Source of the DNA: a virus
Virus record (IMG/VR): IMGVR_UViG_3300044825_001871
Span: 1-64,000 of that record
DNA length: 64,000 nt
Direction: 5' to 3' (one strand)
Positions 2,689 through 33,679 of the stretch are shown in pieces. Position 1 is the first letter of the stretch. Each line of letters starts with the position of its first letter. The notes under the pieces were generated by a model. The model made no database searches. It was not told the DNA's origin and saw nothing but the letters and a program-made list of their open reading frames with translations. The translations under genes were made by a program, and so were the position numbers.

Positions 2689-2746
2689 GGACACTTCACA
2701 AACAGGCACAAGGGCACTTGAAACAGAGTGCCTTTCGTTGTATAAT
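2689..2746 (+). promoter_or_regulatory. Operator/-10 promoter cassette 1
   Basis: GGACACTT (2689-2696), CAGGCACA (2703-2710), a GGCACT/AGTGCC hairpin with a T run, then TATAAT at 2741, 30 bases after the second box. No -35 consensus at the usual place. Confidence 0.7.
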
Positions 2747-2769
2747 GACTTCATAACCACAAAGAACTG

Positions 2770-3303
2770 ATGATTGAACCAATAGGATACAAACTTAATC
2801 CAAAGAAACTCAAAAAAGCACCACAATATATTACTCCTTATTTGTTTCTTGGTGCTTTTTATTACACCGAAGATTATGAGTATTTTGATGTAATTAAACC
2901 TTATCTTGATATTCCAGAGAAACCTAAAACTCTGGAAGAAATCTCACAAGAGTTTGATGAGAAGATTGATAAACAGATTGAAGATGTAGAGTATAAGTTC
3001 GCACAACTCAAATACTATCAAGAGTATCAGTTTAGTAAAAAGATTACCAAGATTATTGAGGATATTGAGTATGCGAAAGAACACGGACAATTCCCAGTCA
3101 AACTCACAGTAGGTGATTTATGTTGTTCTAACGTTGGTATCAGCAGTACTGTAGATTGGAGTACAGAGTTTAGAATTGGTAAAGATGAGGTAGGATACTG
3201 GGACATCAAACCAAACATCAAAGTGTATCTGAAAAAGAAACCAAATCGTGTTGTGAGATACTTTACTAAATTGCTTCTGGACTTTACTTGGAAAGATGTA
3301 TGA
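2770..3303 (+). CDS. Hypothetical protein (177 aa)
   Basis: First gene after cassette 1. A helical centre (residues 55-105, Lys/Glu-rich, probable coiled coil) is flanked by aromatic-rich parts. Contains D-L-C-C-S-N-V-G and D-I-K-P-N-I-K-V-Y-L-K-K-K-P. Family not recognised. It overlaps the next start by 4 bases. Confidence 0.75.
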   Translation: MIEPIGYKLNPKKLKKAPQYITPYLFLGAFYYTEDYEYFDVIKPYLDIPEKPKTLEEISQEFDEKIDKQIEDVEYKFAQLKYYQEYQFSKKITKIIEDIEYAKEHGQFPVKLTVGDLCCSNVGISSTVDWSTEFRIGKDEVGYWDIKPNIKVYLKKKPNRVVRYFTKLLLDFTWKDV

Positions 3304-3593
3304 CTAATCCTCTCATAGAAAAATATAATGAACTCTACGGAAAGAAAGAAGAACCAAAACCAGATTATTATAAGGGTGAAAAGTCATACGCAGAAGAACT
3401 GGAAGAACTTCGGGATACTTCTACTATTCCTGTTAGTAAAATCAAATCTTATGACATTAATAGTGTGAATGTTTCTTTTCATCAAGTCGTAGAACAAGTC
3501 AAAAAAGGTGAGGCACAAGTATCCAGTATGAGTATGGAAATGGATATAATGTATGGAACAAAAATAACCTTTGAGGTTTATGTGGACACTTGA
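3300..3593 (+). CDS. Hypothetical protein (97 aa)
   Basis: Starts at ATG 3300 in an overlap with the upstream stop. Charged N-terminus and a beta-rich C-terminus. The second promoter cassette begins inside its last codons, so its 3' end doubles as operator. Function unknown. Confidence 0.7.
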   Translation: MTNPLIEKYNELYGKKEEPKPDYYKGEKSYAEELEELRDTSTIPVSKIKSYDINSVNVSFHQVVEQVKKGEAQVSSMSMEMDIMYGTKITFEVYVDT

Positions 3594-3640
3594 AGAACTG
3601 GCACAGGAGCATCCCACAGGTGCTCCTTTTGCCTTATAAT
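3584..3640 (+). promoter_or_regulatory. Operator/-10 promoter cassette 2
   Basis: GGACACTT (3584), ACTGGCACA (3597-3605), a GGAGCA/TGCTCC hairpin with TTTT, then TATAAT at 3635, 29 bases after the box. The downstream leader (ACTCTCATACACA) is shared with two neighbouring promoters. Confidence 0.75.
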
Positions 3641-3663
3641 ACTCTCATACACACAAAGGACTG

Positions 3664-3852
3664 ATGACTTCAAAAACCATATCAATTGGTGATTGGAAAA
3701 TTAAAACTTTGACTGAAACAGAAGTCAAAGATATTATTGCTATGCTTCGTCAGGCACAACAAGACAATCTTGATGATGAGTATTCTTATGATTACTTCAA
3801 AAAATTAGCATCAAAAATTCACCGAATGGGACTTGCTTTTCAATCTCTTTGA
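3664..3852 (+). CDS. Small hypothetical protein (62 aa)
   Basis: Served by cassette 2. Short strand (I-S-I-G-D-W-K-I-K) then helices with L-T-E-T-E-V-K-D-I-I. Function unknown. Confidence 0.7.
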   Translation: MTSKTISIGDWKIKTLTETEVKDIIAMLRQAQQDNLDDEYSYDYFKKLASKIHRMGLAFQSL

Positions 3853-3858
3853 TATAAT
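3853..3858 (+). promoter_or_regulatory. TATAAT -10 box with shared leader
   Basis: TATAAT immediately after the upstream stop, followed by the same ACTCTCATACACACA leader as cassettes 2 and 4. No clear operator boxes, so a degenerate cassette. Confidence 0.5.
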
Positions 3859-3883
3859 ACTCTCATACACACAGAAACCTGTT

Positions 3884-4273
3884 ATGAAACCCTTTGACTA
3901 CTACTCCAAATCTCAAACTGCTTATCCCAACAAAAAGGATTACATCACTTATTATGTTTATGATAAGGGTAAAGTTCTTTGGTCTGGTCCTACTTGGGAA
4001 AAGGATAAAACAGAACTAAAAGAAGAATATCCTAATGCTGTTATTCAGGAAGTTTTGGATAATGAAAGATACAAATCACACCAACTTCAATATACAGATG
4101 AAAAGCATAAACTTCACGAAGAGTTTGTGAATGACCTCTTTGAGAACTTTAATGTAACTAATAATCCTAAAAGGCAAAAGGCATTTGACCTTGCTTGGGA
4201 AAAAGGACACGCAAATGGTCTTGAAGAAGTGTATAATGAGTTTTATGACCTTGTAGAACTTATTCAGGATTGA
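3884..4273 (+). CDS. Hypothetical protein (129 aa)
   Basis: ATG 3884 lies 25 bases after a -10 box, so the longer upstream frame is unlikely to be used. Begins M-K-P-F-D-Y-Y-S-K-S-Q-T-A-Y-P and contains G-K-V-L-W-S-G-P-T-W-E. Acidic C-terminus. Looks cyanophage-conserved but no function known to me. Confidence 0.7.
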   Translation: MKPFDYYSKSQTAYPNKKDYITYYVYDKGKVLWSGPTWEKDKTELKEEYPNAVIQEVLDNERYKSHQLQYTDEKHKLHEEFVNDLFENFNVTNNPKRQKAFDLAWEKGHANGLEEVYNEFYDLVELIQD

Positions 4274-4330
4274 GGACACTTTCTAAACTGGCACAGGGAT
4301 GCTCCAAGTGTCCCTGTGATGTCTTATAAT
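4274..4330 (+). promoter_or_regulatory. Operator/-10 promoter cassette 4
   Basis: GGACACTT (4274), ACTGGCACA (4287-4295), hairpin ACAGGGA/TCCCTGT, TATAAT at 4325 (29-base gap). Confidence 0.75.
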
Positions 4331-4355
4331 ACTCTCATACACAAAGGAACTCCAA

Positions 4356-4562
4356 ATGGCAATTGACACCAGCACCTGCATCAACATCCTCCCTGATGAG
4401 GAGTGGTATTATTCTGTTGAAGACCAGAATATTGCGACCAGTTTGGGTGGTTGTACGATTTCTTATTGGCAAGACCAAAAACGACATACTCACATTACGA
4501 TGGAACCTGAAGAAGCACTTGCCGTTGCTGATGCCATCTACAAACTCTTTAAGAAGAACTGA
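4356..4562 (+). CDS. Small hypothetical protein (68 aa)
   Basis: First gene after cassette 4; a longer frame 7 bases downstream is treated as a shadow. Contains E-E-W-Y-Y-S-V-E-D and ends in the helix E-E-A-L-A-V-A-D-A-I-Y-K-L-F. Function unknown. Confidence 0.7.
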   Translation: MAIDTSTCINILPDEEWYYSVEDQNIATSLGGCTISYWQDQKRHTHITMEPEEALAVADAIYKLFKKN

Positions 4563-4563
4563 A

Positions 4564-4782
4564 ATGACTCGCAATCTGATTCTTCACAGGACAAAAATCG
4601 TTGTCTATGTGAGTATTACTCTTGTTCTACTAGCAATGGATTCAATTTGGAAGGGTATTCGTTGGTTCTTTGAGTATCAAGTTTATGCCTTCACAGGTCT
4701 GTTTTATGAACCTTATCAGAACGCAAGGTATTATTGTCGCAAGTATCTGAACCCTAAAACTTTGAATTGGAATAACCGATGA
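4564..4782 (+). CDS. Small membrane-associated protein (72 aa)
   Basis: ATG 4564 follows the upstream stop by one base. Residues 11-24 (I-V-V-Y-V-S-I-T-L-V-L-L-A) form a probable membrane segment, followed by an aromatic amphipathic stretch. Overlaps the next start by 4 bases. Confidence 0.65.
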   Translation: MTRNLILHRTKIVVYVSITLVLLAMDSIWKGIRWFFEYQVYAFTGLFYEPYQNARYYCRKYLNPKTLNWNNR

Positions 4783-4964
4783 CTTACACAATCACCAAAG
4801 AAATCAAAATCCACCACGATGAATATGGTTGGTGTTTTGAGTTCTCACCTGATGAGTATGGAACTGTAAGTGTGCGTGATGGTAATGGACCAGAATACCA
4901 AACCATTCACATTCCTCAAGATTGTATTCAATCATTTATTGATGTTTTAGAACAATACAAATGA
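4779..4964 (+). CDS. Small hypothetical protein (61 aa)
   Basis: Overlaps both neighbours by 4 bases. Beta-rich (Y-G-W-C-F-E-F-S-P-D-E-Y-G-T-V-S-V) with a C-terminal helix. The frame pattern looks cyanophage-conserved; no function assigned. Confidence 0.7.
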   Translation: MTYTITKEIKIHHDEYGWCFEFSPDEYGTVSVRDGNGPEYQTIHIPQDCIQSFIDVLEQYK

Positions 4965-5155
4965 ACCTCACCAAAGAAGATTATCTCAATTCTCTAAAGA
5001 GTTGGGTTAAATACACTCCTTGGGAATGGATAAGTAATTATTGCGACGAACAAGGTCGTTGCTGGTTTGAAATTATGGGAGAATGGAAACTCATTAAACC
5101 AACAACTGCTTACAACACTATCACTTGTCTTCCTTTTTACATCAATCCAAACTGA
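4961..5155 (+). CDS. Small hypothetical protein (64 aa)
   Basis: Trp- and Tyr-rich (W-V-K-Y-T-P-W-E-W-I). Starts in an ATGA overlap and ends one base before the next ATG. Function unknown. Confidence 0.65.
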   Translation: MNLTKEDYLNSLKSWVKYTPWEWISNYCDEQGRCWFEIMGEWKLIKPTTAYNTITCLPFYINPN

Positions 5156-5156
5156 A

Positions 5157-5402
5157 ATGAAACTCTACCAGCACGACAAACAAACTTATCAGGATGGTGA
5201 AGTATCTCACACCTGGCAGTTTGGTATTATCAACGACATATCATTACTTTGGGTGAATTTTGAAAGCCCTGGTGGTGTCATTCATTCTTCTGGTGGTATC
5301 AACCTCTTGTTTTCTTTCTTTGGTAATTCTCTTATGAGTGTAGATTTTCAACAACGAAGGTTTTGTTTAGCATTTGCTTTTATTACTGAATACGATGACT
5401 GA
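5157..5402 (+). CDS. Hypothetical protein (81 aa)
   Basis: ATG 5157 chosen because it abuts the upstream stop. N-terminus resembles the protein at 482. Contains G-G-V-I-H-S-S-G-G and hydrophobic strands. Overlaps the next gene by 8 bases (ATGACTGA). Confidence 0.65.
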   Translation: MKLYQHDKQTYQDGEVSHTWQFGIINDISLLWVNFESPGGVIHSSGGINLLFSFFGNSLMSVDFQQRRFCLAFAFITEYDD

Positions 5403-5740: not shown

Positions 5741-5742
5741 TT

Positions 5743-7671: not shown

Positions 7672-8435
7672 CTGAACACAATCTACCAGAAAAGGATGAT
7701 GCTCCCTGGTTGAACACACGATATGATGGATTTATGACACACGAAGAAATGCTTGAAGAAGCAGCACGACGAGAAGCAATCGTAGCAAAAGTATCTGAAG
7801 AAGACTATCAGAAAGTCCAAAAAGAAGTAGCAAACAAAAAAGCACTAGAAGCAGTAAAAAAACTTTATGCTGAAAATGGCGATGCTCTAAAAGAACTTGC
7901 TGATATTGAAAAGGAGGAACGAATGGATGCTGTAAGAACTGCCATTGTTGGTATTGATAAGTATTCCGATGCTCTTAAAGAACTTTCTGAAACAGAAAAA
8001 GTGGAACTGCGAGCAGAACTTGAAAAGAAAAAGAAGGAAAACTTCCAACTGGTTTCTGATGCTTGTATGAAAGAATATGAGCAGAAGTATAATCGTGATG
8101 TATTCCCAGTAGATGAATACTGGGTGTATATGCTTTCTGAATATGGGGCAACGGGGGAAGGAAATACTGTTTGTATTATGATGACACAGGCAATTCCATA
8201 TGGCGCTGACTTTAGTGAAGAGAATAGGTATGTTCCTATCAACTCACAGCAATATCGTGCTGTGAGAGCATTCCACGAGCAGTTTGGCACTTGGCATCTT
8301 CATGGTCTCAGATTTCTCAGTAAAGAAGATTTCTTCACTGAATGTGCTTATTACATTCCTCCTGTGATGATGAAACTTTCTAACAAAAATTGCTTTAAAG
8401 AGTTTCATACCAAAGTTCACTACAACTTCTCATAG
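7668..8435 (+). CDS. Hypothetical protein with long charged helices (255 aa)
   Basis: ATG 7668 chosen because it sits in the overlap with the upstream stop. Residues 20-140 are Lys/Glu/Ala-rich, probably helical; from about residue 150 there is a folded C-terminal part (Y-W-V-Y-M-L-S-E-Y-G, W-H-L-H-G-L-R-F-L). No domain recognised. Last gene of its run. Confidence 0.75.
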   Translation: MTEHNLPEKDDAPWLNTRYDGFMTHEEMLEEAARREAIVAKVSEEDYQKVQKEVANKKALEAVKKLYAENGDALKELADIEKEERMDAVRTAIVGIDKYSDALKELSETEKVELRAELEKKKKENFQLVSDACMKEYEQKYNRDVFPVDEYWVYMLSEYGATGEGNTVCIMMTQAIPYGADFSEENRYVPINSQQYRAVRAFHEQFGTWHLHGLRFLSKEDFFTECAYYIPPVMMKLSNKNCFKEFHTKVHYNFS

Positions 8436-8491
8436 GACACTTGGTGAAGTGGTACGGAGGAACTGCCTTAGGTTCTTGAGCGTGCTATAAT
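8435..8491 (+). promoter_or_regulatory. Operator/-10 promoter cassette 5
   Basis: GGACACTT at 8435, diverged second box AGTGGTACG (8448-8456), TATAAT at 8486 after 29 bases. The first box overlaps the upstream stop. Confidence 0.65.
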
Positions 8492-9308: not shown

Positions 9309-9329
9309 GGTGCTTTCGGGCACCTTTTC
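9309..9329 (+). terminator. Intrinsic terminator inside the inverted repeat
   Basis: Stem GGTGC/GCACC followed by TTTTCT, very like the hairpin at 1972. Confidence 0.6.
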
Positions 9330-9342
9330 TATTATAAAGTAT

Positions 9343-9350
9343 TATAAATA
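9343..9350 (+). promoter_or_regulatory. Late promoter B before HNH gene
   Basis: Exact TATAAATA between the arms; initiation about 6 bases later falls within the second arm. Confidence 0.65.
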
Positions 9351-9375
9351 CCTATGCACTCTCAATAGAATAAAA

Positions 9376-10341
9376 ATGAACTATCTGAAGGTTTATTGTA
9401 ACCTCATTAGAAAAGCAGAGAATAGAACTTTATCTGAAGATTACATAGAAAAGCATCATACATTCCCAAAAAGTATCTTTGGAAAGAATAATAGAGTTGT
9501 TATGCTCACTGCAAGAGAGCATTACATCGCACATTTGCTATTAGAAAAAATTTGTATCGTAAGATATGGAATTGATGATAAAAGAACAAAGAAAATGAAT
9601 CTTGCTTGTTTTTTAATGAGAAGTCGTAGTGAAAAATACAATTCTCATTTATATGAACAAGTAAGAAAGAGATATAGTGAAAATATGAAGGAAAGAATGA
9701 AAGGTGAAAATAATCCAAGTTATGGTGTTCCTTGTAGTGAAGAGAGGAAACAAAAAATAAGAGAAAAACACTTGGGAAGAAAAGCATCTCAAGAAACAAA
9801 AAATAAAATGAGTATAACCAGAAAAGGAAGAAAGTTTAGAAGTTATATTAAAAATGGGAAAAGGTTTGGAAATTACTTAAAAATATATGATTTGCAGTTT
9901 AGAGAAATGTTTATTGAAATAGTTAAAACTTCTCATACTAAAACTGAAATTGTAAAAAGGTTAGAAAATAAAATAAGTTATAAATGTGTTGTTGGTTGGA
10001 TAAAGGAATTGAATTTAGATACTATTCATTTTACTGGAAATCTTGGACTAAAACATACAGATGAAGCAAAGGAAAATATAAAATTAGCAAAACTTGGCGA
10101 GAAAAATCCATTTTATGGAAAAACTCATACTGATGAAGTTAAATCCAAGATGAGTGAAGATAGAACAGGAGAAAAAAATGCTTTTTATGGTAAAACACAT
10201 AACCAAGAAACCAGGCAAAAAATTGGAGAAAAAAATAGTGAAAGTATGAAAGGTATGTTGTGGTGGAATGATGGACAAACTCAAAAAAGAAGTAGAGAAT
10301 GTCCTGGTGATGATTGGATAAGAGGTAGGTTAAAAAAATAA
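9376..10341 (+). CDS. HNH-type free-standing homing endonuclease
   Basis: Start at ATG 9376 just after the second inverted-repeat arm; the longer frame from 9310 would run through the promoter. Residues 18-55 (E-K-H-H-T-F-P-K ... L-T-A-R-E-H-Y-I-A-H-L-L) match the HNH core of phage endonucleases. NUMOD3-like repeats follow (G-E-N-N-P-S-Y-G, E-K-N-P-F-Y-G-K-T-H, E-K-N-A-F-Y-G-K-T-H). The C-terminal W-W-N-D-G ... G-D-D-W-I-R-G-R-L is typical of cyanophage enzymes. Length 321 aa, apparently intact. Confidence 0.85.
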   Translation: MNYLKVYCNLIRKAENRTLSEDYIEKHHTFPKSIFGKNNRVVMLTAREHYIAHLLLEKICIVRYGIDDKRTKKMNLACFLMRSRSEKYNSHLYEQVRKRYSENMKERMKGENNPSYGVPCSEERKQKIREKHLGRKASQETKNKMSITRKGRKFRSYIKNGKRFGNYLKIYDLQFREMFIEIVKTSHTKTEIVKRLENKISYKCVVGWIKELNLDTIHFTGNLGLKHTDEAKENIKLAKLGEKNPFYGKTHTDEVKSKMSEDRTGEKNAFYGKTHNQETRQKIGEKNSESMKGMLWWNDGQTQKRSRECPGDDWIRGRLKK

Positions 10342-10345
10342 CAAA

Positions 10346-10403
10346 AGACACTTGAATAACTGGCACAGGACATCTCACACTCTCACCACTTCTGTGCTAT
10401 AAT
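10346..10403 (+). promoter_or_regulatory. Operator/-10 promoter cassette 6
   Basis: AGACACTT (first box, one mismatch), ACTGGCACA (10359-10367), TATAAT at 10398 after 30 bases. Confidence 0.7.
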
Positions 10404-11227: not shown

Positions 11228-11397
11228 ACGAGAAATCTAAAATCTACTACAATATCTGGTGTTGCGCTTATCAACGTAGAGGACTATATAAAGGAACCGA
11301 CAGGGAACACAGAGAGCACGAAACTGTGCGTATGTGCCTTGATATGAAAGACGTGAAGTTCTATCATTTTGATACAGAAAAACCGCATTATCTCTAA
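11224..11397 (+). CDS. Small hypothetical protein (57 aa)
   Basis: Begins M-N-E-K-S-K-I-Y-Y-N-I-W-C-C, basic centre rich in Arg, His and Glu. Overlaps neighbours by 4 and 1 bases. No family recognised. Confidence 0.65.
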   Translation: MNEKSKIYYNIWCCAYQRRGLYKGTDREHREHETVRMCLDMKDVKFYHFDTEKPHYL

Positions 11398-11777
11398 TGA
11401 TATTCTCCAGACCAATTTTAGGAACTAATACCAAGAAAACTAAACTGTCTTGGATTGAATACTACTGGAACTCTTGTATTGTTCAGGGATGGTATAATTG
11501 TTGGTATGCCTTTAAGAATTGGTCCGACTTGATGGGTAATCACTATCAAGACTATGCACTTCTCAAGACTGATGATCCATTAGAACAATGTATTCTTTAT
11601 TTCTGGGATAGTCTTGAAGATGAGATTTATCCCAAACACTTCTTGGATAGTCTTCTTCAAATGGCACACGACATTGATACTGGTAAAGAAAAAGTTATTC
11701 CTCTTGATGAAAATTTCTTTGATAGAATGAAAGACCTTGTAAAAGATGTGGAGTTGAATGATGAAGACCTTACCTGA
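11397..11777 (+). CDS. Hypothetical protein (126 aa)
   Basis: Trp/Tyr-rich first half (W-I-E-Y-Y-W-N-S-C-I-V-Q-G-W-Y-N-C-W) similar in style to 10427 and 10645; acidic C-terminus. Overlaps the next gene by 17 bases. Confidence 0.7.
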   Translation: MIFSRPILGTNTKKTKLSWIEYYWNSCIVQGWYNCWYAFKNWSDLMGNHYQDYALLKTDDPLEQCILYFWDSLEDEIYPKHFLDSLLQMAHDIDTGKEKVIPLDENFFDRMKDLVKDVELNDEDLT

Positions 11778-14441: not shown

Positions 14442-14556
14442 TAAGTGTGGAGTGGCAAAACCACTTGACGAAAACCATTACCAAGTCGTAAAATACTTTC
14501 GTGATGGTTTTTCTTATTACTGCCACGAATGTTCTAAACCTAAACCAAAAGATTGA
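14353..14556 (+). CDS. Small zinc-ribbon-like protein (about 45-67 aa)
   Basis: C-D-K-C ... C-H-E-C with A-K-P-L-D-E-N-H-Y-Q and F-R-D-G-F-S-Y-Y in between, as in small phage HNH-like or zinc-ribbon proteins. The start is uncertain: ATG 14353 gives an 89-base overlap, and the conserved part only begins near 14430. Confidence 0.6.
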   Translation: MLTLLTKILKWNSRNSNVSESPSKKTRICDKCGVAKPLDENHYQVVKYFRDGFSYYCHECSKPKPKD

Positions 14557-14558
14557 TT

Positions 14559-15101
14559 ATGGACTATAAAAAGTATTCTCTTGAGAATCTTGAAAATTGG
14601 TTGCACGATGCAATGTCTGCAGGTGAAGCAACACCTCAGGAAATCTATGATGTTATTGTTGGCGTAGTTAAGGAAAACTACTACACATACAAACATCAAA
14701 CATCTCAAGCATATGAACTTCTTGCACTGTTGAATAGCGGTGTCGATAATAACAAATATCAAGATTATCTAAATAAAACCTTGAGATGTGATGGAGATAA
14801 TTCTTCACCTGAACGTAAAGGTGTTTGGAGTGATTTTTGGCAAGAATACTATTACCCAGAAGAATCTAAACTTCACGTAACTGAAGATGGAGATATATAT
14901 CCAGTTAAAGATAAAGTTGTAAAGTGGCGACTTCCGATTGAAATGGATGGATTGACCGGTGAATGTTATGTTCAGTTTCCTGATGATTTGTTAGAAGCAG
15001 CAAATCTAAAGGAAGGTGATACAGTAAACTGGATTGACCGTGGAGACGGTAGTTTTGAATTGAGAAAAGTAACTAAACCCCTAGGAATGGATGAGTGTTG
15101 A
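14559..15101 (+). CDS. AbrB-like domain protein (180 aa)
   Basis: Residues 1-80 are helical; the C-terminus from about 130 (G-E-C-Y-V-Q-F-P-D-D-L-L-E-A-A-N-L-K-E-G) looks like an AbrB/SpoVT swapped-hairpin DNA-binding fold. A transcription or assembly regulator is possible; the family assignment is by eye. First 3 bases after the upstream stop. Confidence 0.7.
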   Translation: MDYKKYSLENLENWLHDAMSAGEATPQEIYDVIVGVVKENYYTYKHQTSQAYELLALLNSGVDNNKYQDYLNKTLRCDGDNSSPERKGVWSDFWQEYYYPEESKLHVTEDGDIYPVKDKVVKWRLPIEMDGLTGECYVQFPDDLLEAANLKEGDTVNWIDRGDGSFELRKVTKPLGMDEC

Positions 15102-17552: not shown

Positions 17553-17710
17553 TGAAACCAACTCCAAGAGAACTACAAGAAACCTATAAAACCTACGAAA
17601 GTATTGTAGAACATTTGATTTCGGAAGGTTATGCTGATGATAAAGAATCTGCAGATAAAATCATCGCGGGTATGAGTGAAACTTGGTATAGTTTTATTAT
17701 TAACAACTGA
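17552..17710 (+). CDS. Small conserved helical protein (52 aa)
   Basis: P-R-E-L-Q-E-T-Y-K-T-Y-E-S-I-V-E-H-L-I, then S-A-D-K-I-I-A-G-M-S. Shares one base with the upstream stop. Looks conserved in cyanophages; function unknown. Confidence 0.7.
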   Translation: MKPTPRELQETYKTYESIVEHLISEGYADDKESADKIIAGMSETWYSFIINN

Positions 17711-17767
17711 GGACACTTCCCAAACTGTCCCATAGACCCCCCAGAGGGGTCTTTTTTGTGCTATGAT
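17711..17767 (+). promoter_or_regulatory. Operator/-10 promoter cassette 7
   Basis: GGACACTT (17711), ACTGTCCCA (17724-17732), a strong terminator, then TATGAT at 17762 (29-base gap). Confidence 0.7.
17734..17757 (+). terminator. Intrinsic terminator within cassette 7
   Basis: AGACCCC/GGGGTCT stem followed by six T. It ends the upstream operon just before the -10 box of the next. Confidence 0.75.
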
Positions 17768-18009: not shown

Positions 18010-18179
18010 TGGAAGGATTTATAGTTGGGGATGGTACTTATTGTGCTGTCCCTTTTGGAAAACAACTGATGATTATACATAATGGTCAACAGTTAAAAGT
18101 CTGTAGAACAGAGGCATCTGCAAGAAAATATATTGATGCACTAAAAAAAGGAAAATCAGTGGCAAAACTTCCTTTGTGA
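18009..18179 (+). CDS. Small hypothetical protein (56 aa)
   Basis: M-E-G-F-I-V-G-D-G-T-Y-C-A-V-P-F-G-K. Shares a base with the upstream stop; its own stop lies in the next operator. Function unknown. Confidence 0.65.
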   Translation: MEGFIVGDGTYCAVPFGKQLMIIHNGQQLKVCRTEASARKYIDALKKGKSVAKLPL

Positions 18180-18233
18180 CACTTGTTTTTCTGGCACAAC
18201 TCACTCCAATTTTGGTGGGTTGTGTCCTATACT
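18176..18233 (+). promoter_or_regulatory. Operator/-10 promoter cassette 8
   Basis: GTGACACTT (18176), TCTGGCACA (18190-18198), ACTCACTCC.. ..GGTGGGTTGT imperfect hairpin, TATACT at 18228 (29-base gap). Confidence 0.7.
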
Positions 18234-20879: not shown

Positions 20880-21248
20880 ATGAAAACTTTTACGCAATTT
20901 TCTGAAGATGTAAATAGACTGGAGCAGAGAAGACAACAACTGCGTCAAAGACAACAAGAACAAATTGCAAAGCAAAAGAAAAGAGTTGCTGCATATCAAG
21001 CAGCACAAAGACAAAAAATAGTAGCACAGAGAGAAAGAGAACAATTAAAGAGAGAACTTAAAAGGGAATTGCAAACAGAGCAAAGTCCTGCGATGAAACC
21101 AAATCTTTATAGTCAGTTGGTTGCAAGACGCCAAGCATCTCAAAAATCAGCACTTATTAAACACGCTCATCAAGAAATGGGTGCTGAGGCAAGAACACAA
21201 GAAGCAGCACATCAAGCAAGACTTAAAAAACTCACTGGGACACCTTAG
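20880..21248 (+). CDS. Basic coiled-coil protein with capsid-targeting-like N-terminus (122 aa)
   Basis: M-K-T-F-T-Q-F-S-E-D-V starts like the putative internal proteins at 17106 and 15616. The rest is Gln/Arg/Lys-rich coiled coil (R-R-Q-Q-L-R-Q-R-Q-Q-E-Q). A clear L-x-E cut site is not evident, so the head role is weaker here. AAGGGA precedes ATG. Confidence 0.65.
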   Translation: MKTFTQFSEDVNRLEQRRQQLRQRQQEQIAKQKKRVAAYQAAQRQKIVAQREREQLKRELKRELQTEQSPAMKPNLYSQLVARRQASQKSALIKHAHQEMGAEARTQEAAHQARLKKLTGTP

Positions 21249-21294
21249 GAACTGGCACACACAACCCCACAAGCGCCCGGATCTGGTGTATAGT
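21238..21294 (+). promoter_or_regulatory. Operator/-10 promoter cassette 9
   Basis: GGACACCTT (21238, overlapping the upstream stop), ACTGGCACA (21251-21259), TATAGT at 21289 (29-base gap). Confidence 0.7.
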
Positions 21295-21462: not shown

Positions 21463-21654
21463 ATGACTGATACTGTAAATGTTCTCCCGCACCTCCAAGA
21501 ACTTCAGCGAACTTGGAGGCGACAAGATTTTAGTTTGACTAAACAACAACAAGAAGAGTATGATATGCTTCTTCAAGCAAGGAGAGAAAGAGTAAAATAC
21601 TTTTATACTAATGGTCTAGTCTCAAAGGGTCGCGTTAAGACGGACACTCCCTGA
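21463..21654 (+). CDS. Small basic helical protein (63 aa)
   Basis: L-P-H-L-Q-E-L-Q-R-T-W-R-R-Q-D-F and Q-A-R-R-E-R-V-K-Y-F. Last codons overlap the next operator. Conserved in style; function unknown. Confidence 0.7.
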   Translation: MTDTVNVLPHLQELQRTWRRQDFSLTKQQQEEYDMLLQARRERVKYFYTNGLVSKGRVKTDTP

Positions 21655-21699
21655 ACTGGCACAAGAGGGGTTGCGGGGTGCCCTAAACCCTGCTATATT
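21642..21699 (+). promoter_or_regulatory. Operator/-10 promoter cassette 10
   Basis: GGACACTC (21642), ACTGGCACA (21655-21663), GC-rich hairpin GGGGTTGCGGGGTGCCC region, TATATT at 21694 (30-base gap). Confidence 0.7.
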
Positions 21700-21728: not shown

Positions 21729-21914
21729 ATGCTTGTTGACAACAACAACAGTCTTCAAAAGAACTACAACTTTGATGCTCTCCAAGACATTTGTAGCACT
21801 CGCGTCGAAAATGCAAACTTCTTTCTTGGGATCTACGAAACTCTTGGTGATTGCACGGTAGAGAGTGCATACTACCGCGAAGAGATTGCAAAGTATAAAC
21901 TTTATGACGTGTGA
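21729..21914 (+). CDS. Small hypothetical protein (61 aa)
   Basis: Follows cassette 10. Helical with F-D-A-L-Q-D-I-C-S-T-R-V-E-N-A. The stop lies just in front of the next operator. Function unknown. Confidence 0.65.
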   Translation: MLVDNNNSLQKNYNFDALQDICSTRVENANFFLGIYETLGDCTVESAYYREEIAKYKLYDV

Positions 21915-21969
21915 CAGTCTTTGAACTGGTACATGATCGCTTGACCTGCTACCAGTTTCCTGGTACAAT
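21911..21969 (+). promoter_or_regulatory. Operator/-10 promoter cassette 11
   Basis: GTGACAGTC (diverged first box), ACTGGTACA (21925-21933), TACAAT at 21964 (30-base gap), with an ACCAG/CTGGT hairpin between. Confidence 0.6.
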
Positions 21970-22763: not shown

Positions 22764-22782
22764 TTATATAACTAATACTATT

Positions 22783-22840
22783 GTGCCACTTCTTCTGGTG
22801 GCACAATAACCTTTACGGAGCGCGGTCAGCGTGCTATGAT
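22783..22840 (+). promoter_or_regulatory. Operator/-10 promoter cassette 12 (palindromic form)
   Basis: TGTGCCAC and GTGGCACA inverted repeat (operator ends at 22805), TATGAT at 22835 after 29 bases. Confidence 0.75.
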
Positions 22841-23010: not shown

Positions 23011-23053
23011 TAGATAGACCGCCGCAGTTCGGTCTCTAAATATAAACTGTTCT

Positions 23054-23124
23054 GGGGAATTAGTTAAACGGTATAACGGGTGCTTTGCAAGCACTTATTA
23101 GGAGTTCGATTCTCCTATTCTCCA
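23054..23124 (+). tRNA. tRNA-Ala (anticodon TGC)
   Basis: Full cloverleaf: acceptor GGGGAAT/ATTCTCC, D stem GTT/AAC, anticodon stem GGTGC/GCACT with loop TTTGCAA, T stem AGGAG/CTCCT with loop TTCGATT. G3:U70, the alanine identity pair, is present. CCA is not encoded. Confidence 0.95.
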
Positions 23125-23165
23125 TTGGGAATTATATTCCCAAATTGCCCTCTTTCATCTTTACT

Positions 23166-23669: not shown

Positions 23670-23741
23670 GGGCACATAGTTAAGCGGATATAACCTTCGC
23701 CTTCTAAGCGAATGTCCCTGGTTCGATTCCAGGTGTGCCTG
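23670..23741 (+). tRNA. tRNA-Arg (anticodon TCT)
   Basis: Cloverleaf: acceptor GGGCACA/TGTGCCT (first pair G:U), anticodon stem TTCGC/GCGAA with loop CTTCTAA, T stem CCTGG/CCAGG with TTCGATT. Reads AGA codons, which are frequent in the AT-rich late genes of this window. CCA not encoded. Confidence 0.95.
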
Positions 23742-23762
23742 CTACACATTATTCTTCCAAAA

Positions 23763-24022: not shown

Positions 24023-24166
24023 ATGAAAGATCTAACGCTAGATGAAATGCTTGAAATTGCTGCTGAAAGAGAAGCAGCAAATGAAGCACTACTAAAACAA
24101 CAGCAAGAGGATGACTCTGGGGACACTTCTTCTAGTGTCCATATAGACCCCCACAGCGACCTCTGA
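24023..24166 (+). CDS. Small acidic protein whose tail is encoded by an operator (47 aa)
   Basis: Residues 1-30 are a helical acidic body (M-L-E-I-A-A-E-R-E-A-A-N-E-A-L-L). The last 15 or so residues are read from the GGACACT/AGTGTCC operator of cassette 13, suggesting the cassette landed in the gene's 3' end. Confidence 0.6.
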   Translation: MKDLTLDEMLEIAAEREAANEALLKQQQEDDSGDTSSSVHIDPHSDL

Positions 24167-24177
24167 TGCACTATCAT
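24121..24177 (+). promoter_or_regulatory. Operator/-10 promoter cassette 13 (inside a gene end)
   Basis: Perfect inverted repeat GGACACT-N6-AGTGTCC (24121-24140), TATCAT at 24172 after about 30 bases. Confidence 0.65.
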
Positions 24178-24325: not shown

Positions 24326-24714
24326 TGAAAGAACAAGTTCTTGATTTGATTCAACAATACTGCGATGTTCTTCGCACCAATTTCCAAACTTATTCAATTA
24401 AACAGCACCAAGACAAAATTGAAATCGGTGAAAATGTAGAGTATCACCGAGAGCAGATTGATAAATTGTCTGAAGGTGAAGGTCTATACAGATACTACTT
24501 TGAAAAAGGAAGAAAGTACGCACGAATTATAATGCAAGTGCCTGGCGGTCAGAGAAGTGCTCATGCATTTGTAGATATGAATACTGCTGATGTGTATAAA
24601 GCAGCATCTTGGAAAGGTCCCGCAAAAGGTATTCGCTACAATCTCCTTGATGATAAGTCAAAGGAAGAAATGTATAAACGTGCAGATTGGGCAGGCGGAC
24701 ATCTATACGCCTGA
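24325..24714 (+). CDS. Conserved cyanophage protein (129 aa)
   Basis: Helical N-terminus, then A-H-A-F-V-D-M-N-T-A-D-V-Y-K-A-A-S-W-K-G-P-A-K, I-R-Y-N-L-L-D and R-A-D-W-A-G-G-H-L-Y. The C-terminal motif is highly conserved among T4-like cyanophages as I recall; no activity is established. Confidence 0.8.
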   Translation: MKEQVLDLIQQYCDVLRTNFQTYSIKQHQDKIEIGENVEYHREQIDKLSEGEGLYRYYFEKGRKYARIIMQVPGGQRSAHAFVDMNTADVYKAASWKGPAKGIRYNLLDDKSKEEMYKRADWAGGHLYA

Positions 24715-24771
24715 GGACACTTGTTCTACTGGCACTGTAAAGTCCCGTAGACCCCCCTGATGCCCTACAAT
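24715..24771 (+). promoter_or_regulatory. Operator/-10 promoter cassette 14
   Basis: GGACACTT (24715), ACTGGCACT (24728-24736), TACAAT at 24766 (29-base gap), followed by AAAGGAG before the gene. Confidence 0.7.
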
Positions 24772-25055: not shown

Positions 25056-25361
25056 ATGACTATTAACTTCACCCGTCTGTCTGCTGGAATCTACGAAGTT
25101 CAGAAGAACTCTAACACAGTTGGTTTCATCCGTAAAGCAAATGCTGCTAAATGGATTGTTGCTGATGTTGTAGACACTCCTCAACATGTCTCTAAGACTC
25201 TCAAGGAAGCAAAGGATGCTTGTATCAATCTAATCATCTTTGATGATGTAGTTGACAAGATCTCTGAGAGTAAGTATAATACCTTTGTTGAGGTTGATAA
25301 GGATGATCTAGGTACTTCTAAGGTATTCAAAGAACCTACTCTAGATCCTATCTTGTTCTGA
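25056..25361 (+). CDS. Hypothetical protein (101 aa)
   Basis: N-F-T-R-L-S-A-G-I-Y-E-V and S-K-T-L-K-E-A-K-D-A; an N-terminal beta sheet followed by helix, as in small phage proteins that modify host factors, but unassigned. Ends just before cassette 15. Confidence 0.7.
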   Translation: MTINFTRLSAGIYEVQKNSNTVGFIRKANAAKWIVADVVDTPQHVSKTLKEAKDACINLIIFDDVVDKISESKYNTFVEVDKDDLGTSKVFKEPTLDPILF

Positions 25362-25419
25362 GTGCCACTTGTGGAACCGTCCAGCATCTCACCCAAACCC
25401 ACGGGAGGGGTGTTATACT
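25362..25419 (+). promoter_or_regulatory. Operator/-10 promoter cassette 15
   Basis: GTGCCACTT (25362), diverged second box AACCGTCCA (ending 25383), TATACT at 25414 (30-base gap). Confidence 0.65.
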
Positions 25420-26880: not shown

Positions 26881-26938
26881 TGTGCCACTTGTACTGGTGG
26901 CACACTAAAAGAGCACAGACCCCAATCTGTGGTATTGT
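26881..26938 (+). promoter_or_regulatory. Operator/-10 promoter cassette 16 (palindromic form)
   Basis: TGTGCCAC-N8-GTGGCACA (26881-26904), ACAGA/TCTGT hairpin, TATTGT at 26933 (28-base gap). The first 59 bases are identical to cassette 17. Confidence 0.78.
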
Positions 26939-28041: not shown

Positions 28042-28099
28042 TGTGCCACTTGTACTGGTGGCACACTAAAAGAGCACAGACCCCAATCTGTGGTATTGT
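28042..28099 (+). promoter_or_regulatory. Operator/-10 promoter cassette 17 (palindromic form)
   Basis: Same sequence as cassette 16 for 59 bases, -10 TATTGT at 28094 (28-base gap). Followed by a GGTGG-rich leader able to fold. Confidence 0.78.
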
Positions 28100-28491: not shown

Positions 28492-28551
28492 TGTGCCACT
28501 TCTTCTAGTGGCACGATACACTCCCCAAACCCCCGCTGGGGGCGCTACAAT
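28492..28551 (+). promoter_or_regulatory. Operator/-10 promoter cassette 18 (palindromic form)
   Basis: TGTGCCAC.. ..GTGGCACG (28492-28515), strong ACCCCCGC.. hairpin, TACAAT at 28546 (30-base gap). Confidence 0.75.
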
Positions 28552-29976: not shown

Positions 29977-30034
29977 TGTGCCAGTTGAGGCACCGTCCAC
30001 TAAACCCCCTGCTGGGTCGGTTCTGTGGTATTCT
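29977..30034 (+). promoter_or_regulatory. Operator/-10 promoter cassette 19
   Basis: TGTGCCAGTT (29977), second box ending ACCGTCCA (29999), TATTCT at 30029 (29-base gap), then a GTGGTGAGGGA leader. Confidence 0.65.
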
Positions 30035-30571: not shown

Positions 30572-31123
30572 TTGAACATTTACTCTCACCTCAAAGAACG
30601 AAATGTCAATATGAGTCTTCATCGACCAATCATTGATGAAGAGAATTGTATTGCAACTTATCTGCTCTATAATCTCTCTGGTCAAATTGTAGGATATCAG
30701 CAATACAATCCACTTGGTGATAGGAAAATGAATAATAAGTCAAAATCAAAGTATTATACTTATGTGAGTAAGAATAAAAGTTCAGTAGTTCTTTATGGTC
30801 TCGAAAGTCTGCATCTAACTGATGGAGTAATTTATGTGACCGAAGGTATCTATGATGCAATGCGACTAACAAATAAAGGACAAACTGCACTTGCAACTCT
30901 TACAAATAATCCATCCAAAGATGTAATCAATCAACTGAAACTTCTGAATCGACCTATTGTTGTTGTTTGCGACAATGATGATGCAGGACGCAAACTTGCA
31001 AAGTGTGGTGATTATGTAGAAGTTGTTGAGGGTGCAAAAGACCTCGCAGAAGCACCTGAATCTTATGTGGATCACCTGATTAAAAAGTATGGTGGTGTGC
31101 CACTTGTACCACTGACACACTAA
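30572..31123 (+). CDS. Toprim-domain protein, TTG start (183 aa)
   Basis: Start TTG 30572 chosen because GGAG lies 7 bases upstream and gives M-N-I-Y-S-H-L-K-E-R. Toprim signatures: V-T-E-G-I-Y-D-A-M-R (about residue 88) and V-C-D-N-D-D-A-G-R-K-L (about 131), as in DnaG-type primases and related nucleases. Much shorter than a full primase, with no zinc or helicase domain, so perhaps a stand-alone or reduced primase-like protein. Its last residues are encoded by operator 20. Confidence 0.8.
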   Translation: MNIYSHLKERNVNMSLHRPIIDEENCIATYLLYNLSGQIVGYQQYNPLGDRKMNNKSKSKYYTYVSKNKSSVVLYGLESLHLTDGVIYVTEGIYDAMRLTNKGQTALATLTNNPSKDVINQLKLLNRPIVVVCDNDDAGRKLAKCGDYVEVVEGAKDLAEAPESYVDHLIKKYGGVPLVPLTH

Positions 31124-31153
31124 AAGAGCACAGACCTCAATCTGTGGTAGATT
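31096..31153 (+). promoter_or_regulatory. Operator/-10 promoter cassette 20 (overlaps Toprim gene end)
   Basis: TGTGCCAC.. ..TGACACA (31096-31119), TAGATT at 31148 (28-base gap), then a GGTGGAGGGAG leader. Confidence 0.68.
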
Positions 31154-31204: not shown

Positions 31205-31879
31205 ATGGATCGCACTCAAGTTATTGCAAAGATTCAGTCCATTCTGAAACTGCAAGAAAATACCACTTTTGATGGTGAGGCATCCGCTGCCGCTGCAATG
31301 ATTGATAAACTTTGCAAGCAATATGGTATTACCCTCAGTGAAGCAACTGAAACTCAAGTTATTGATGAAGAGTTTCTCACTTTCAAGCGTGTTAATGCTG
31401 CACTGAGTCTTCTGCTTAATGCTGTTGCAAACTTCTATGATGCAAAAGCATATCTGAAGAATGGTGATACTAAATCCATTCAGGTAATTGGTTCTGAGGC
31501 ACAACAAATCCAAGTGCGTCTCTATTATGATTACCTGGTGCAGGTGATGGAGAAAGAGGCAGAAGTCGCACATAAAGCAGAAAAGATTCTTGCTTCACTT
31601 CGCGGCGATTCTGTTTCCCGCAGTTTCAAGATTAACTTCCGCAAAGCATTTGCTGAGAAAGTATCTCTGCGACTGCAGGAAATGAAAAAGGAAGAGGGTC
31701 GAGTTCATGATGATGCTGATGCAGTGAAAAACAAACTCTCTGCAATGCGATTCGGACGTGCAAAGAAAATGAATGGTGCTAACGGTGCTGGTGCTTATGC
31801 TGGTTCTAACGTTGGTGCTGGTGTTTCTTTGAACCGTCAAGCATCTGGTTCTGTAACTAAACAACTGTGTGGTGTGTGA
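31205..31879 (+). CDS. DUF2786-like protein (224 aa)
   Basis: The N-terminal I-A-K-I-Q-S-I-L-K-L-Q-E-N-T-T and E-A-S-A-A-A-A-M-I-D-K-L-C-K-Q-Y-G-I match DUF2786. The middle is helical; the C-terminus is Gly/Ala/Asn-rich and likely disordered. Role unknown in phages. ATG 31205 chosen over the upstream in-frame start in the leader. Confidence 0.78.
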   Translation: MDRTQVIAKIQSILKLQENTTFDGEASAAAAMIDKLCKQYGITLSEATETQVIDEEFLTFKRVNAALSLLLNAVANFYDAKAYLKNGDTKSIQVIGSEAQQIQVRLYYDYLVQVMEKEAEVAHKAEKILASLRGDSVSRSFKINFRKAFAEKVSLRLQEMKKEEGRVHDDADAVKNKLSAMRFGRAKKMNGANGAGAYAGSNVGAGVSLNRQASGSVTKQLCGV

Positions 31880-31916
31880 ACTATACACCTCCATTTTCAT
31901 TCCTTCTTGATTCAAA

Positions 31917-32153
31917 ATGCCACAAGTACAGATTACTGAAATTGAGTTCGACCTGGACCCACTTGATAGTATTCAACAACCGAATATGAAAGAATCACTG
32001 CAAGAAGAATATGTGGGAAAAATATATGATCTAGATATGTGTTGTTATAATGAAGTGAATGATGATACTGTATGTGATTGTTTAGTCCAAGAGATTATCA
32101 ATCAATCAGGTTTATGTATTAACCTGATTGACTTCCGTTACATCCTTTTCTGA
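31917..32153 (+). CDS. Acidic hypothetical protein, paralogue of 29395 (78 aa)
   Basis: I-T-E-I-E-F-D-L-D-P-L-D and L-C-I-N-L-I-D, as in the protein at 29395. Function unknown. Confidence 0.7.
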   Translation: MPQVQITEIEFDLDPLDSIQQPNMKESLQEEYVGKIYDLDMCCYNEVNDDTVCDCLVQEIINQSGLCINLIDFRYILF

Positions 32154-32162
32154 GATTACAAA

Positions 32163-32483
32163 ATGAACGCACAACTTTCGATTGGCGAATGCAAAGTAAT
32201 GTGGGTTGTTGGTGCATTGGAACGACTTGCAACTCTTGGTTTGATTGGTCCTGATATTCCTCTGCGACTTTCTGCTAGTGCAGTGGAAGATTATATTCAA
32301 ATTGATGAGCACAGGGAGCATCTGTTTGAATCTGATTTTGAAATCATCAATATCTTTACTGAACTTGCTGATACTGAAGATCAAGATCCCGATCAAATTA
32401 AACCTATCATTGAACTGCTGATGCAATACAAAAACAATCGTACTGATATTGTAAGGTATGCACTCTCGCACCAACTCACCTGA
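32163..32483 (+). CDS. Hypothetical helical protein (106 aa)
   Basis: C-K-V-M-W-V-V-G-A-L-E-R-L-A-T-L-G-L; acidic, helical. Sits just before the nuclease/methyltransferase pair in the same run. Could be a small regulator of that pair, but there is no recognisable DNA-binding motif. Confidence 0.68.
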   Translation: MNAQLSIGECKVMWVVGALERLATLGLIGPDIPLRLSASAVEDYIQIDEHREHLFESDFEIINIFTELADTEDQDPDQIKPIIELLMQYKNNRTDIVRYALSHQLT

Positions 32484-32491
32484 TTAAAATA

Positions 32492-33085
32492 ATGCGTCCG
32501 AATCTCCAAAAAGTTGTTACTCTCTTTCAACCAGATGTTGATGGTTATTCTGATTGGGTAAGTATTGCTGATGTCCGAAATGTAGGATTGCGTTGGAGTG
32601 ATAATGGCAATGCCCGAAGGGGTATTGCCTTTGGGGTGAGTGAATATAATTGGGAGTTCAAGCGAGTGAATAATCGTCGCATTGTTGAAATGCGACTGAA
32701 TGGATATAATCAATCTGCTGCATTTAATCAACGTATTCGCAAAGATATTGTTGATGAACTTCGCCAACAAACTAGATCTAACTTTGCTCCTAATTGTATA
32801 ATTCCTCTAGTTGATAATGACAAAGAAATAGATCATCGCTGGGGTAGAAAAGATCATCCAAAATATGAATACATCAATGATGTAAATAATCAGAGTATTG
32901 ATGATTTTCAACTACTTTCACATAGTCATAATCAATTCAAACGAGAGCAATGTGTGAAATGTAAGAATACTAACCTACGATTTTTACCACCAAACAATCA
33001 AGTATTTAAGATTGGTTGCGAAAAATGGGAAAATGAGGTAGGATGTATGGGGTGTCCTCTTGCTCAACCTGAACTGTATCGGTAA
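32492..33085 (+). CDS. HNH nuclease, candidate type II restriction-type enzyme (197 aa)
   Basis: D-H-R-W-G-R-K at about residue 113, N at 130-131, D-F-Q-L-L-S-H-S-H-N at about 137, and zinc cysteines C-V-K-C (about 153) and C-M-G-C (about 185) form an HNH/beta-beta-alpha-metal fold of the kind in type II restriction enzymes. It is 5 bases from an adenine methyltransferase gene, which supports an R-M pair. It lacks the NUMOD repeats of homing endonucleases. Confidence 0.72.
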   Translation: MRPNLQKVVTLFQPDVDGYSDWVSIADVRNVGLRWSDNGNARRGIAFGVSEYNWEFKRVNNRRIVEMRLNGYNQSAAFNQRIRKDIVDELRQQTRSNFAPNCIIPLVDNDKEIDHRWGRKDHPKYEYINDVNNQSIDDFQLLSHSHNQFKREQCVKCKNTNLRFLPPNNQVFKIGCEKWENEVGCMGCPLAQPELYR

Positions 33086-33090
33086 ATCTT

Positions 33091-33615
33091 ATGACATTAG
33101 ACAGTGGAAAACTAATGTATTCCGCAGGGAATAATGATGAGTGCTACACGCCGAAATATGGCGTGACGCCAATTCTTAAATATATCTCTGAAAATGCGAT
33201 TGTCTGGTGTCCATTTGATACTGCAGAGAGTGAGTTTGTTAAACAAATTTCTGAGCAAAATCAAGTTATTTACACGCATATCTCATTTGGACAAGATTTT
33301 CTCACATTCACACCTAAGTTTGAGTGGGATGTAATTGTATCCAATCCACCATTCACAAATAAGCGTAAGTTTTTTGAGAGAGCATTATCATTTGAGAAAC
33401 CATTTGCATTGATTATGACTAATACTTGGTTGAATGATAGTGCTCCAAAACAGTTATTCAAGGACAAAGACTTGCAACTATTGATGTTCGATAAGAGAAT
33501 GAAATTCAATAGTCCTGATGGTAGGGCAAATGATAAAATTACTTTTAGTAGTAGTTATTATTGCTGGAACTTTTTGCCGAAGCAGATCATAATGGAAGAA
33601 CTGGAGATAAAGTGA
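33091..33615 (+). CDS. DNA adenine-N6 methyltransferase (174 aa)
   Basis: N-D-E-C-Y-T-P at residues 15-21, W-C-P-F-D-T-A-E-S in the SAM-binding region, and catalytic S-N-P-P-F (about 83-87) identify an adenine-N6 methyltransferase of a family common on phages and mobile elements. Small but apparently complete. Could protect against the neighbouring nuclease or against host restriction. Confidence 0.82.
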   Translation: MTLDSGKLMYSAGNNDECYTPKYGVTPILKYISENAIVWCPFDTAESEFVKQISEQNQVIYTHISFGQDFLTFTPKFEWDVIVSNPPFTNKRKFFERALSFEKPFALIMTNTWLNDSAPKQLFKDKDLQLLMFDKRMKFNSPDGRANDKITFSSSYYCWNFLPKQIIMEELEIK

Positions 33616-33621
33616 AGTCCT

Positions 33622-33679
33622 TGTGCCACTTGTACTGGTGGCACACTAAAAGAGCACAGGGTCCAAATTGTGGTATTCT
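33622..33679 (+). promoter_or_regulatory. Operator/-10 promoter cassette 21 (palindromic form)
   Basis: TGTGCCAC-N8-GTGGCACA (33622-33645), identical to cassettes 16 and 17 for the first 38 bases, TATTCT at 33674 (28-base gap), then a GGTGG.. ..CCACC leader hairpin. Confidence 0.75.

What the first reader, a model, noticed from the sequence alone, without database searches (positions are those of the whole stretch)
2689..33679. About 20 copies of one operator/-10 promoter cassette organise the accessory region
A two-part element (GGACACTT or GTGCCACTT, then ACTGGCACA or GTGGCACA; some copies a near-perfect inverted repeat TGTGCCAC-N8-GTGGCACA) occurs between gene runs at 2689, 3584, 4274, 8435, 10346, 17711, 18176, 21238, 21642, 21911, 22783, 24121, 24715, 25362, 26881, 28042, 28492, 29977, 31096 and 33622. 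In each case a TATAAT-like -10 starts 28-30 bases after the second box, and the copies I checked show no TTGACA at the normal -35 position. The centre would lie near -53. This is the geometry of an activator- or co-activator-dependent phage promoter, distinct from T4 MotA boxes near -30. A hairpin or terminator often lies between operator and -10, so each unit can end one operon and start the next.
Basis: seen in the sequence. Interest (0 to 1): 0.87.

Follow-up and report, generated by a model that had tools for sequence, protein, structure and literature searches.

The report
Host-type promoter switch copied throughout cyanophages
Viruses that kill marine and freshwater cyanobacteria carry up to about 30 copies of one small DNA switch between their genes, and the switch matches the promoter of a host regulatory RNA, so the virus probably runs these genes through one of the host's own control proteins.

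Summary
All 20 sites are real and a 21st lies at 36537. The 24-bp element is a palindrome, consensus TGTGnCAnTT-N4-AAnTGnCACA, followed 28-30 bp later by TATAAT. It is not private to this phage: 46 IMG/VR loci found by the full pattern, all cyanomyovirus-like, and many named cyanomyoviruses (ACG-2014f 34 operators, B23 33, S-CRM01 24, S-SRM01 24, S-PM2 14, P-SSM2 13) carry it; Syn9, S-SM2 and S-CREM1 barely do. Each copy is an operon junction: upstream stop codon at the operator, start codon about 17 nt after the predicted RNA start, often a hairpin in the spacer. About 30% of family copies keep a TTGACA-like -35 (14% here), so 'no -35' is only partly right.

The key result: the same palindrome at nearly the same spacing is part of the promoter of the cyanobacterial sRNA Yfr2/Cyano-1 (RF01701). 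A matrix trained only on phage sites has its best hit at that position in 16 of 30 independently chosen host promoters (1.7 expected). Yfr2 is controlled by the host GntR-family regulator PMM1637 through the CGRE1 motif (PMC6778093). Best reading: cyanomyoviruses borrowed this host-regulated promoter as their accessory-gene junction cassette. PMM1637 acting on phage copies is inference; no binding or expression was tested.

The parts
2687..2746 (+). cassette 1: operator 2687-2710, hairpin spacer 30, -10 TATAAT 2741-2746
3582..3640 (+). cassette 2: operator 3582-3605, hairpin and T-run spacer 29, -10 TATAAT 3635-3640
4272..4330 (+). cassette 3: operator 4272-4295, spacer 29, -10 TATAAT
8433..8491 (+). 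cassette 4: operator 8433-8456, spacer 29, -10 TATAAT
10344..10403 (+). cassette 5: operator 10344-10367, spacer 30, -10 TATAAT
17709..17767 (+). cassette 6: operator 17709-17732, terminator-like spacer 29 (hairpin plus T6), -10 TATGAT
18175..18233 (+). cassette 7: operator 18175-18198, spacer 29, -10 TATACT
21236..21294 (+). cassette 8: operator 21236-21259, spacer 29, -10 TATAGT
21640..21699 (+). cassette 9: operator 21640-21663, spacer 30, -10 TATATT
21910..21969 (+). cassette 10: operator 21910-21933, spacer 30, -10 TACAAT
22782..22840 (+). cassette 11: operator 22782-22805 (perfect inverted repeat arms), spacer 29, -10 TATGAT
24119..24177 (+). cassette 12: operator 24119-24142, spacer 29, -10 TATCAT
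24713..24771 (+). cassette 13: operator 24713-24736, spacer 29, -10 TACAAT
25361..25419 (+). cassette 14: operator 25361-25384, spacer 29, -10 TATACT
26881..26938 (+). cassette 15 (subclass B): operator 26881-26904, spacer 28, -10 TATTGT
28042..28099 (+). cassette 16 (subclass B): operator 28042-28065, spacer 28, -10 TATTGT, leader with 5' hairpin
28492..28551 (+). cassette 17: operator 28492-28515, spacer 30, -10 TACAAT
29977..30034 (+). cassette 18 (weakest operator, 11 bits leave-one-out): 29977-30000, spacer 28, -10 TATTCT
31096..31153 (+). cassette 19 (subclass B): operator 31096-31119, spacer 28, -10 TAGATT
33622..33679 (+). cassette 20 (subclass B): operator 33622-33645, spacer 28, -10 TATTCT

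Best explanation
Each cassette is an operon-junction unit. The upstream stop codon abuts a 24-bp palindromic operator. A 28-30 bp spacer follows, often with a terminator-like hairpin and sometimes a weak -35. Then come the -10, the start site, and an ATG about 17 nt further on. The operator is most likely a copy of the binding site of a host GntR-family regulator, the PMM1637 type, which is reported to bind the CGRE1 motif in promoters of the conserved cyanobacterial sRNA Yfr2. Cyanomyoviruses thus appear to have taken over the host yfr2 promoter architecture and multiplied it, so that host RNA polymerase with the primary sigma factor, helped by the host regulator bound near -53, starts each small accessory operon while the hairpin ends the one before. 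Shown here: the cassette, its spacing, its spread in cyanomyoviruses, its operon-junction anatomy, and the same operator geometry in host yfr2-type promoters. From the literature: PMM1637 binds yfr2 promoters that hold CGRE1 and mediates Yfr2 induction. Inferred: that PMM1637-type protein binds the phage copies, that it activates them, and when in infection this happens.
For: Phage spread with fixed 29/30 bp spacing. 46/46 full-pattern loci and 111/114 palindrome loci are cyanomyovirus-like. The palindrome also occurs in cyanobacterial chromosomes: 38 of 291 genomes at up to 1 mismatch, against 13 control sites. In 8 of those loci it lies just upstream of Cyano-1 RNA, RF01701, with the -10 at about 29-30 bp. 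In 30 yfr2-type promoters chosen by RF01701 or by published MED4 coordinates, not by the palindrome, a phage-only matrix has its best hit 41-46 bp upstream of the conserved 5' motif in 16, 1.7 expected; MED4 yfr5 scores 16.5 bits. The MED4 yfr2 promoter carries the exact half-sites AACTGGCACA and TGTGACAATT. PMC6778093: PMM1637, 'common to all cyanobacteria', binds yfr2 promoters with CGRE1 and mediates Yfr2 induction. The 323-aa protein taken as PMM1637 in the MED4 genome is GntR (PF00392, E 1e-12); no convincing phage homologue. Operon-junction anatomy.
Against: The CGRE1 paper (PMC6191309) is not held, so I could not compare its motif with this palindrome. In MED4 only yfr5 has a near-complete inward palindrome; yfr2 and yfr4 have the left half-site at the right place with a right half-site upstream in everted order, yfr4 scores no better than shuffles, and yfr3 has neither. 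The phage sites match the palindromes of larger cyanobacteria better than those of Prochlorococcus; marine Synechococcus yfr2 promoters were not recovered. Fourteen of the 30 yfr2-type promoters have no best match at the expected place. Some phages (Syn9, S-SM2, SynMITS9220M01) have almost no copies. GntR proteins are often repressors.
Confidence: 0.68

Rival explanations
1. A phage-encoded regulator binds the operator, and the likeness to the host yfr2 promoter is convergence or a shared DNA-binding fold.
For: The palindrome is dense in phages and sparse in chromosomes. One window protein (14553-15098) has a weak MazE/AbrB-type domain, E 5e-5, below the curated cut-off, and S-SRM01 has an annotated AbrB/MazE protein.
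Against: No gene tracked motif-rich against motif-poor phages cleanly. S-CREM1 has a MazE-type gene too (PMC9964418) but only about 3 sites. No GntR or classic transcription-factor family among the families listed for 151 own ORFs (lists cut at 25). The host promoter match is far above chance.
Confidence: 0.13
2. The operator is a repression or timing site: the host regulator (or a phage one) bound next to the promoter holds these early sigma-70 promoters down or switches them off later.
For: GntR-family proteins are commonly repressors (general knowledge). Many copies have an extended or consensus -10, and ACG-2014f copies keep a -35-like box, so they may fire unaided.
Against: The operator ends well upstream of the -35 position, which suits an activator better than a blocker. 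The literature describes induction of Yfr2 mediated by PMM1637 (PMC6778093). Window copies mostly lack a -35.
Confidence: 0.13
3. The units are mainly recombination or shuffling cassettes (PeSL-like) and sequence conservation reflects exchange between copies rather than binding.
For: They lie between modules in the hyperplastic region upstream of gp25. Subclass B copies in the window are nearly identical over 50 or more bp.
Against: Conservation is concentrated in the half-sites and the -10 while spacers vary freely. The 28-30 bp spacing is kept when sequence is not. The S-PM2 ORFanage deletion does not have cassettes at its ends.
Confidence: 0.05
4. Ordinary terminator plus sigma-70 promoter pairs; the palindrome is just the terminator stem.
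For: Palindrome arms could form an RNA hairpin; terminators and promoters adjoin in compact genomes.
Against: The palindrome is not followed by a T-run, the hairpin with T-run is a second structure in the spacer, half-sites are conserved in sequence, and the same site occurs upstream of host sRNA genes.
Confidence: 0.01

Closest known systems
CGRE1 element of yfr2 (Cyano-1, RF01701) sRNA promoters, bound by host GntR regulator PMM1637 (PMC6778093; original report PMC6191309 not readable here)
   Same: Same half-sites TGTGnCAnTT/AAnTGnCACA; operator 28-31 bp before the -10; host RNA polymerase promoter.
   Different: In hosts it drives one to a few sRNA genes; in phages 10-34 copies drive protein operons and are combined with a spacer hairpin. 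Picocyanobacterial versions are more degenerate or rearranged.
PeSL (promoter-early stem-loop) cassettes of T4-like phages (PMC2839356, PMC4122927; not held, known through PMC4503421)
   Same: Repeated composite terminator plus promoter units in hyperplastic regions, one ending an operon and one starting the next.
   Different: As far as I know PeSLs have no conserved 24-bp operator. S-PM2 authors reported too few PeSLs in S-PM2 (PMC4503421); the 24-bp search finds 14 sites there, one next to a stem-loop they noted at 11369-11391.
Host-factor boxes in cyanophages: PhoB boxes in S-PM2d (PMC10976474), predicted NtcA and Pho boxes (PMC3037559)
   Same: Phage promoters using host stress regulators.
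   Different: Different motif and regulator; those occur at single genes, this one organises a whole accessory region.
P2 Ogr / P4 Delta late promoters (from memory)
   Same: Operator of dyad symmetry centred near -55, no proper -35, activator contacting RNA polymerase.
   Different: Ogr site is TGT-N12-ACA, here TGT-N18-ACA; no Ogr-type protein appeared in the family lists.
T4 MotA middle promoters
   Same: Activator-assisted promoters with weak -35.
   Different: MotA box replaces the -35 near -30; cyanomyoviruses lack motA and asiA (PMC2984593).

Membership tests
CGRE1 / PMM1637-regulated promoter | Operator sequence as in yfr2 promoters | tested here: met
   Phage-only matrix has its best hit at the expected offset in 16 of 30 independent host yfr2-type promoters, 1.7 expected; exact half-sites in MED4 yfr2. 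The published CGRE1 logo itself could not be read.
CGRE1 / PMM1637-regulated promoter | Same position relative to the -10 | tested here: met
   Host 30-31 bp, phage mostly 28-30 bp
CGRE1 / PMM1637-regulated promoter | Bound by the GntR regulator in vitro | not testable with these tools
   needs EMSA or footprint
CGRE1 / PMM1637-regulated promoter | Drives a Yfr2 sRNA | tested here: not met
   No Cyano-1 RNA in window 1-40000; cassettes precede protein ORFs. It is the regulatory site that is shared, not the sRNA.
PeSL cassette | Many copies between modules of a hyperplastic region | tested here: met
   21 copies in 2.7-36.6 kb, upstream of the gp25-gp6 region
PeSL cassette | Stem-loop terminator before the promoter | tested here: inconclusive
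   43% of spacers z < -1.5; T-run in 10-18%
PeSL cassette | Early sigma-70 promoter (-35 and -10) | tested here: inconclusive
   -10 strong; -35-like box in 14% of window and 30% of all copies; timing unknown
PeSL cassette | Serves as point of module exchange | not tested
   no comparison of module boundaries was made
T4 MotA middle promoter | MotA box near -30 | tested here: not met
   Conserved box is centred near -53
T4 late promoter (gp55) | TATAAATA at -10 | tested here: not met
   Consensus is TATAATA with T 96% at the sixth base
P2 Ogr-type promoter | TGT-N12-ACA operator | tested here: not met
   Spacing is TGT-N18-ACA

The most novel reading that the evidence does not exclude
A large part of the cyanomyovirus accessory genome is wired to one host regulon. 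Tens of phage operators tie its expression to the host's light and nitrogen signalling through the GntR regulator, and, as phage genomes multiply, they titrate that regulator away from yfr2 and so disturb the host's own sRNA control of photosynthesis.
Probability: 0.25. Interest if true: 0.87.

Novelty: new variant of a known kind. Interest (0 to 1): 0.74.

Why it matters
How cyanomyoviruses control early and middle genes without MotA, AsiA or Alt is described as unclear (PMC2984593). This gives a precise, widespread promoter element, present in culturable phages (S-PM2, P-SSM2, S-SKS1, S-SRM01), and names a candidate host regulator, which makes the question testable. It would also tie viral gene expression to the light and nitrogen status of the most abundant photosynthetic cells, and it explains how operons of small ORFan genes in the hypervariable region are delimited.

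Tried and rejected
(1) Phage-encoded transcription factor by co-occurrence: no gene separated motif-rich from motif-poor phages; MazE/AbrB-like protein kept only as a weak lead. (2) Genome-collection search with the GGACACTT form found 3 hits, about chance level; only the full palindrome revealed the host sites. (3) Two searches meant for picocyanobacteria used relatives of G004, whose matches look AT-rich and probably belong to non-photosynthetic members of the phylum; they say nothing about phage hosts, and the same holds. (4) Two searches of the family of G162 (picocyanobacteria) for yfr2 starts returned mostly chance hits, but one led to a genome whose coordinates match Prochlorococcus MED4. 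(5) Cyano-1 RNA in the phage window: none. (6) A weak tblastn hit of the GntR protein in S-CRM01 (E 0.16) has no open frame that supports it, rejected. (7) NtcA (GTA-N8-TAC), CRP (TGTGA-N6-TCACA) and Pho boxes were considered; spacing or sequence do not fit. (8) The papers PMC2839356, PMC4122927 and PMC6191309 are not held, so prior mention of CGRE1 in phages cannot be excluded.
Full report
The window is the first 64 kb of a 156,235-base IMG/VR record. It is a T4-like cyanomyovirus: gp25-, gp6- and other baseplate-like genes start at 40.5 kb, and the accessory region matches the S-PM2 'ORFanage'.

Observation. All 20 listed sites are present. They form one 24-bp palindromic operator, consensus TGTGnCAnTT-N4-AAnTGnCACA, whose left half is degenerate (GGACACTT) in some copies. 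Leave-one-out matrix scores are 11-31 bits. A whole-genome scan adds a good copy at 36537 and finds the cassettes confined to 2.7-36.6 kb and on the + strand; a weaker operator at 122253 has a -10 at the right distance and one at 132570 does not. The -10 lies 28-30 bp after the operator.

Spacing is not an artefact of choosing sites by eye. Palindromes collected from IMG/VR without regard to a -10 show enriched -10 hexamers only at 28-30 bp. In 12 other cyanomyoviruses the 350 oriented operators have 62 and 48 near-consensus -10s at 29 and 30 bp against about 3 at other distances.

Anatomy. In most copies the upstream ORF stops within about 20 bases of the operator start and the next ATG lies 16-23 nt after the predicted start site. 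The cassette is therefore essentially the whole intergenic region. Spacer hairpins are frequent but not universal (43% with z < -1.5 over 167 sites; T-runs 18%). A TTGACA-like box at exactly 17 bp is present in 30% of family copies, 78% in ACG-2014f and 14% in this genome, sometimes inside the hairpin loop. So the promoters run from -35-plus to -35-less. A subclass B (26881, 28042, 31096, 33622) has a spacer of 28, TATTNT or TAGATT, and in most copies a GC-rich 5' leader hairpin.

Distribution. The long pattern gave 46 IMG/VR loci and the palindrome 114; 46/46 and 111/114 contain ORFs matching named cyanomyoviruses. Named genomes differ widely: 34 operators in ACG-2014f, 33 in B23, 24 in S-CRM01 and S-SRM01, 14 in S-PM2, 13 in P-SSM2 and S-SKS1, 1-4 in Syn9, S-SM2 and S-CREM1, none in SynMITS9220M01.

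Source of the operator. In 291 cyanobacterial-phylum genomes 38 hold the palindrome at up to one mismatch, against 13 control sites. In eight of the loci it lies directly upstream of Cyano-1 RNA, RF01701, with the -10 at about 29-30 bp. This sRNA has the GTGTGAGGAG 5' motif of the Yfr2 family. I then took yfr2-type promoters independently of the palindrome: RF01701 hits, plus MED4 yfr2-5 by published coordinates (PMC1242208) from a genome whose coordinates match MED4. A matrix trained only on 167 phage sites has its best hit 41-46 bases upstream of the 5' motif in 16 of 30, with 1.7 expected. In MED4, yfr5 has a 3-mismatch palindrome at the same place, and yfr2 has the exact half-sites TGTGACAATT (in place) and AACTGGCACA (just upstream, everted). 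PMC6778093 states that the GntR regulator PMM1637, common to all cyanobacteria, binds yfr2 promoters containing CGRE1, and that it mediates Yfr2 induction by high light and late nitrogen starvation. The protein taken as PMM1637 (L446:6595-7563) is GntR by Pfam, and no convincing homologue is found in 13 phage genomes.

Interpretation. The simplest account is that cyanomyoviruses acquired the host GntR-regulated yfr2-type promoter and multiplied it as an operon-junction cassette. Activation rather than repression is inferred from the Yfr2 literature and the operator position. Binding to phage DNA, start sites, timing and any titration effect are untested.

Limits. The CGRE1 paper was not available, so identity of CGRE1 with this palindrome, and whether phage copies were already noted, are open. 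Marine Synechococcus yfr2 promoters were not recovered. The host sites of larger cyanobacteria fit the phage consensus better than those of Prochlorococcus. I found no paper in the library describing this element in cyanophages, which is weak evidence of novelty.

Noticed in passing
window 26881, 28042, 31096, 33622; L062, L063, L068 and others: A subclass of cassettes (spacer 28, TATTNT or TAGATT) in most copies starts its RNA with a GGGTGG...CCACCC-type 5' hairpin (29 leaders, mean z -1.66); it could stabilise the mRNA or mimic the GUGAGG motif of Yfr2.
   Followed up: partly
L326-L330 (five cyanobacterial genomes): The same palindrome (TGTGCCACTTGCAAAACTGGTACA type) is conserved at one further chromosomal locus, next to a roughly 470-aa ORF and, in several, a small membrane-protein-like ORF: a possible second member of the host regulon, without Cyano-1 RNA.
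   Followed up: no
window 14553-15098: Protein with a weak C-terminal MazE/AbrB-type domain; a similar annotation exists in S-SRM01 (gp130).
   Followed up: partly
L014 (S-PM2) 11347-11400: A stem-loop noted by the S-PM2 authors at 11369-11391 is the spacer hairpin of one of these cassettes; their count of too few PeSLs in S-PM2 should be revisited.
   Followed up: partly
window 23053-23125 and 23670-23742: tRNA-Ala(TGC) and tRNA-Arg(TCT) genes within the cassette region.
   Followed up: no
window 9310-10341 and 38548-39024: Homing-endonuclease-like ORFs within the accessory region (NUMOD3 and HNH_3 families appear in the Pfam list for the window's ORFs; which ORF carries which was not resolved). 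One ends at cassette 10344.
   Followed up: no
L323 1501-1524 and 1673-1696: Two tandem palindromes 172 bp apart in a large-genome cyanobacterium with similar flanks; may be mobile-element ends.
   Followed up: no
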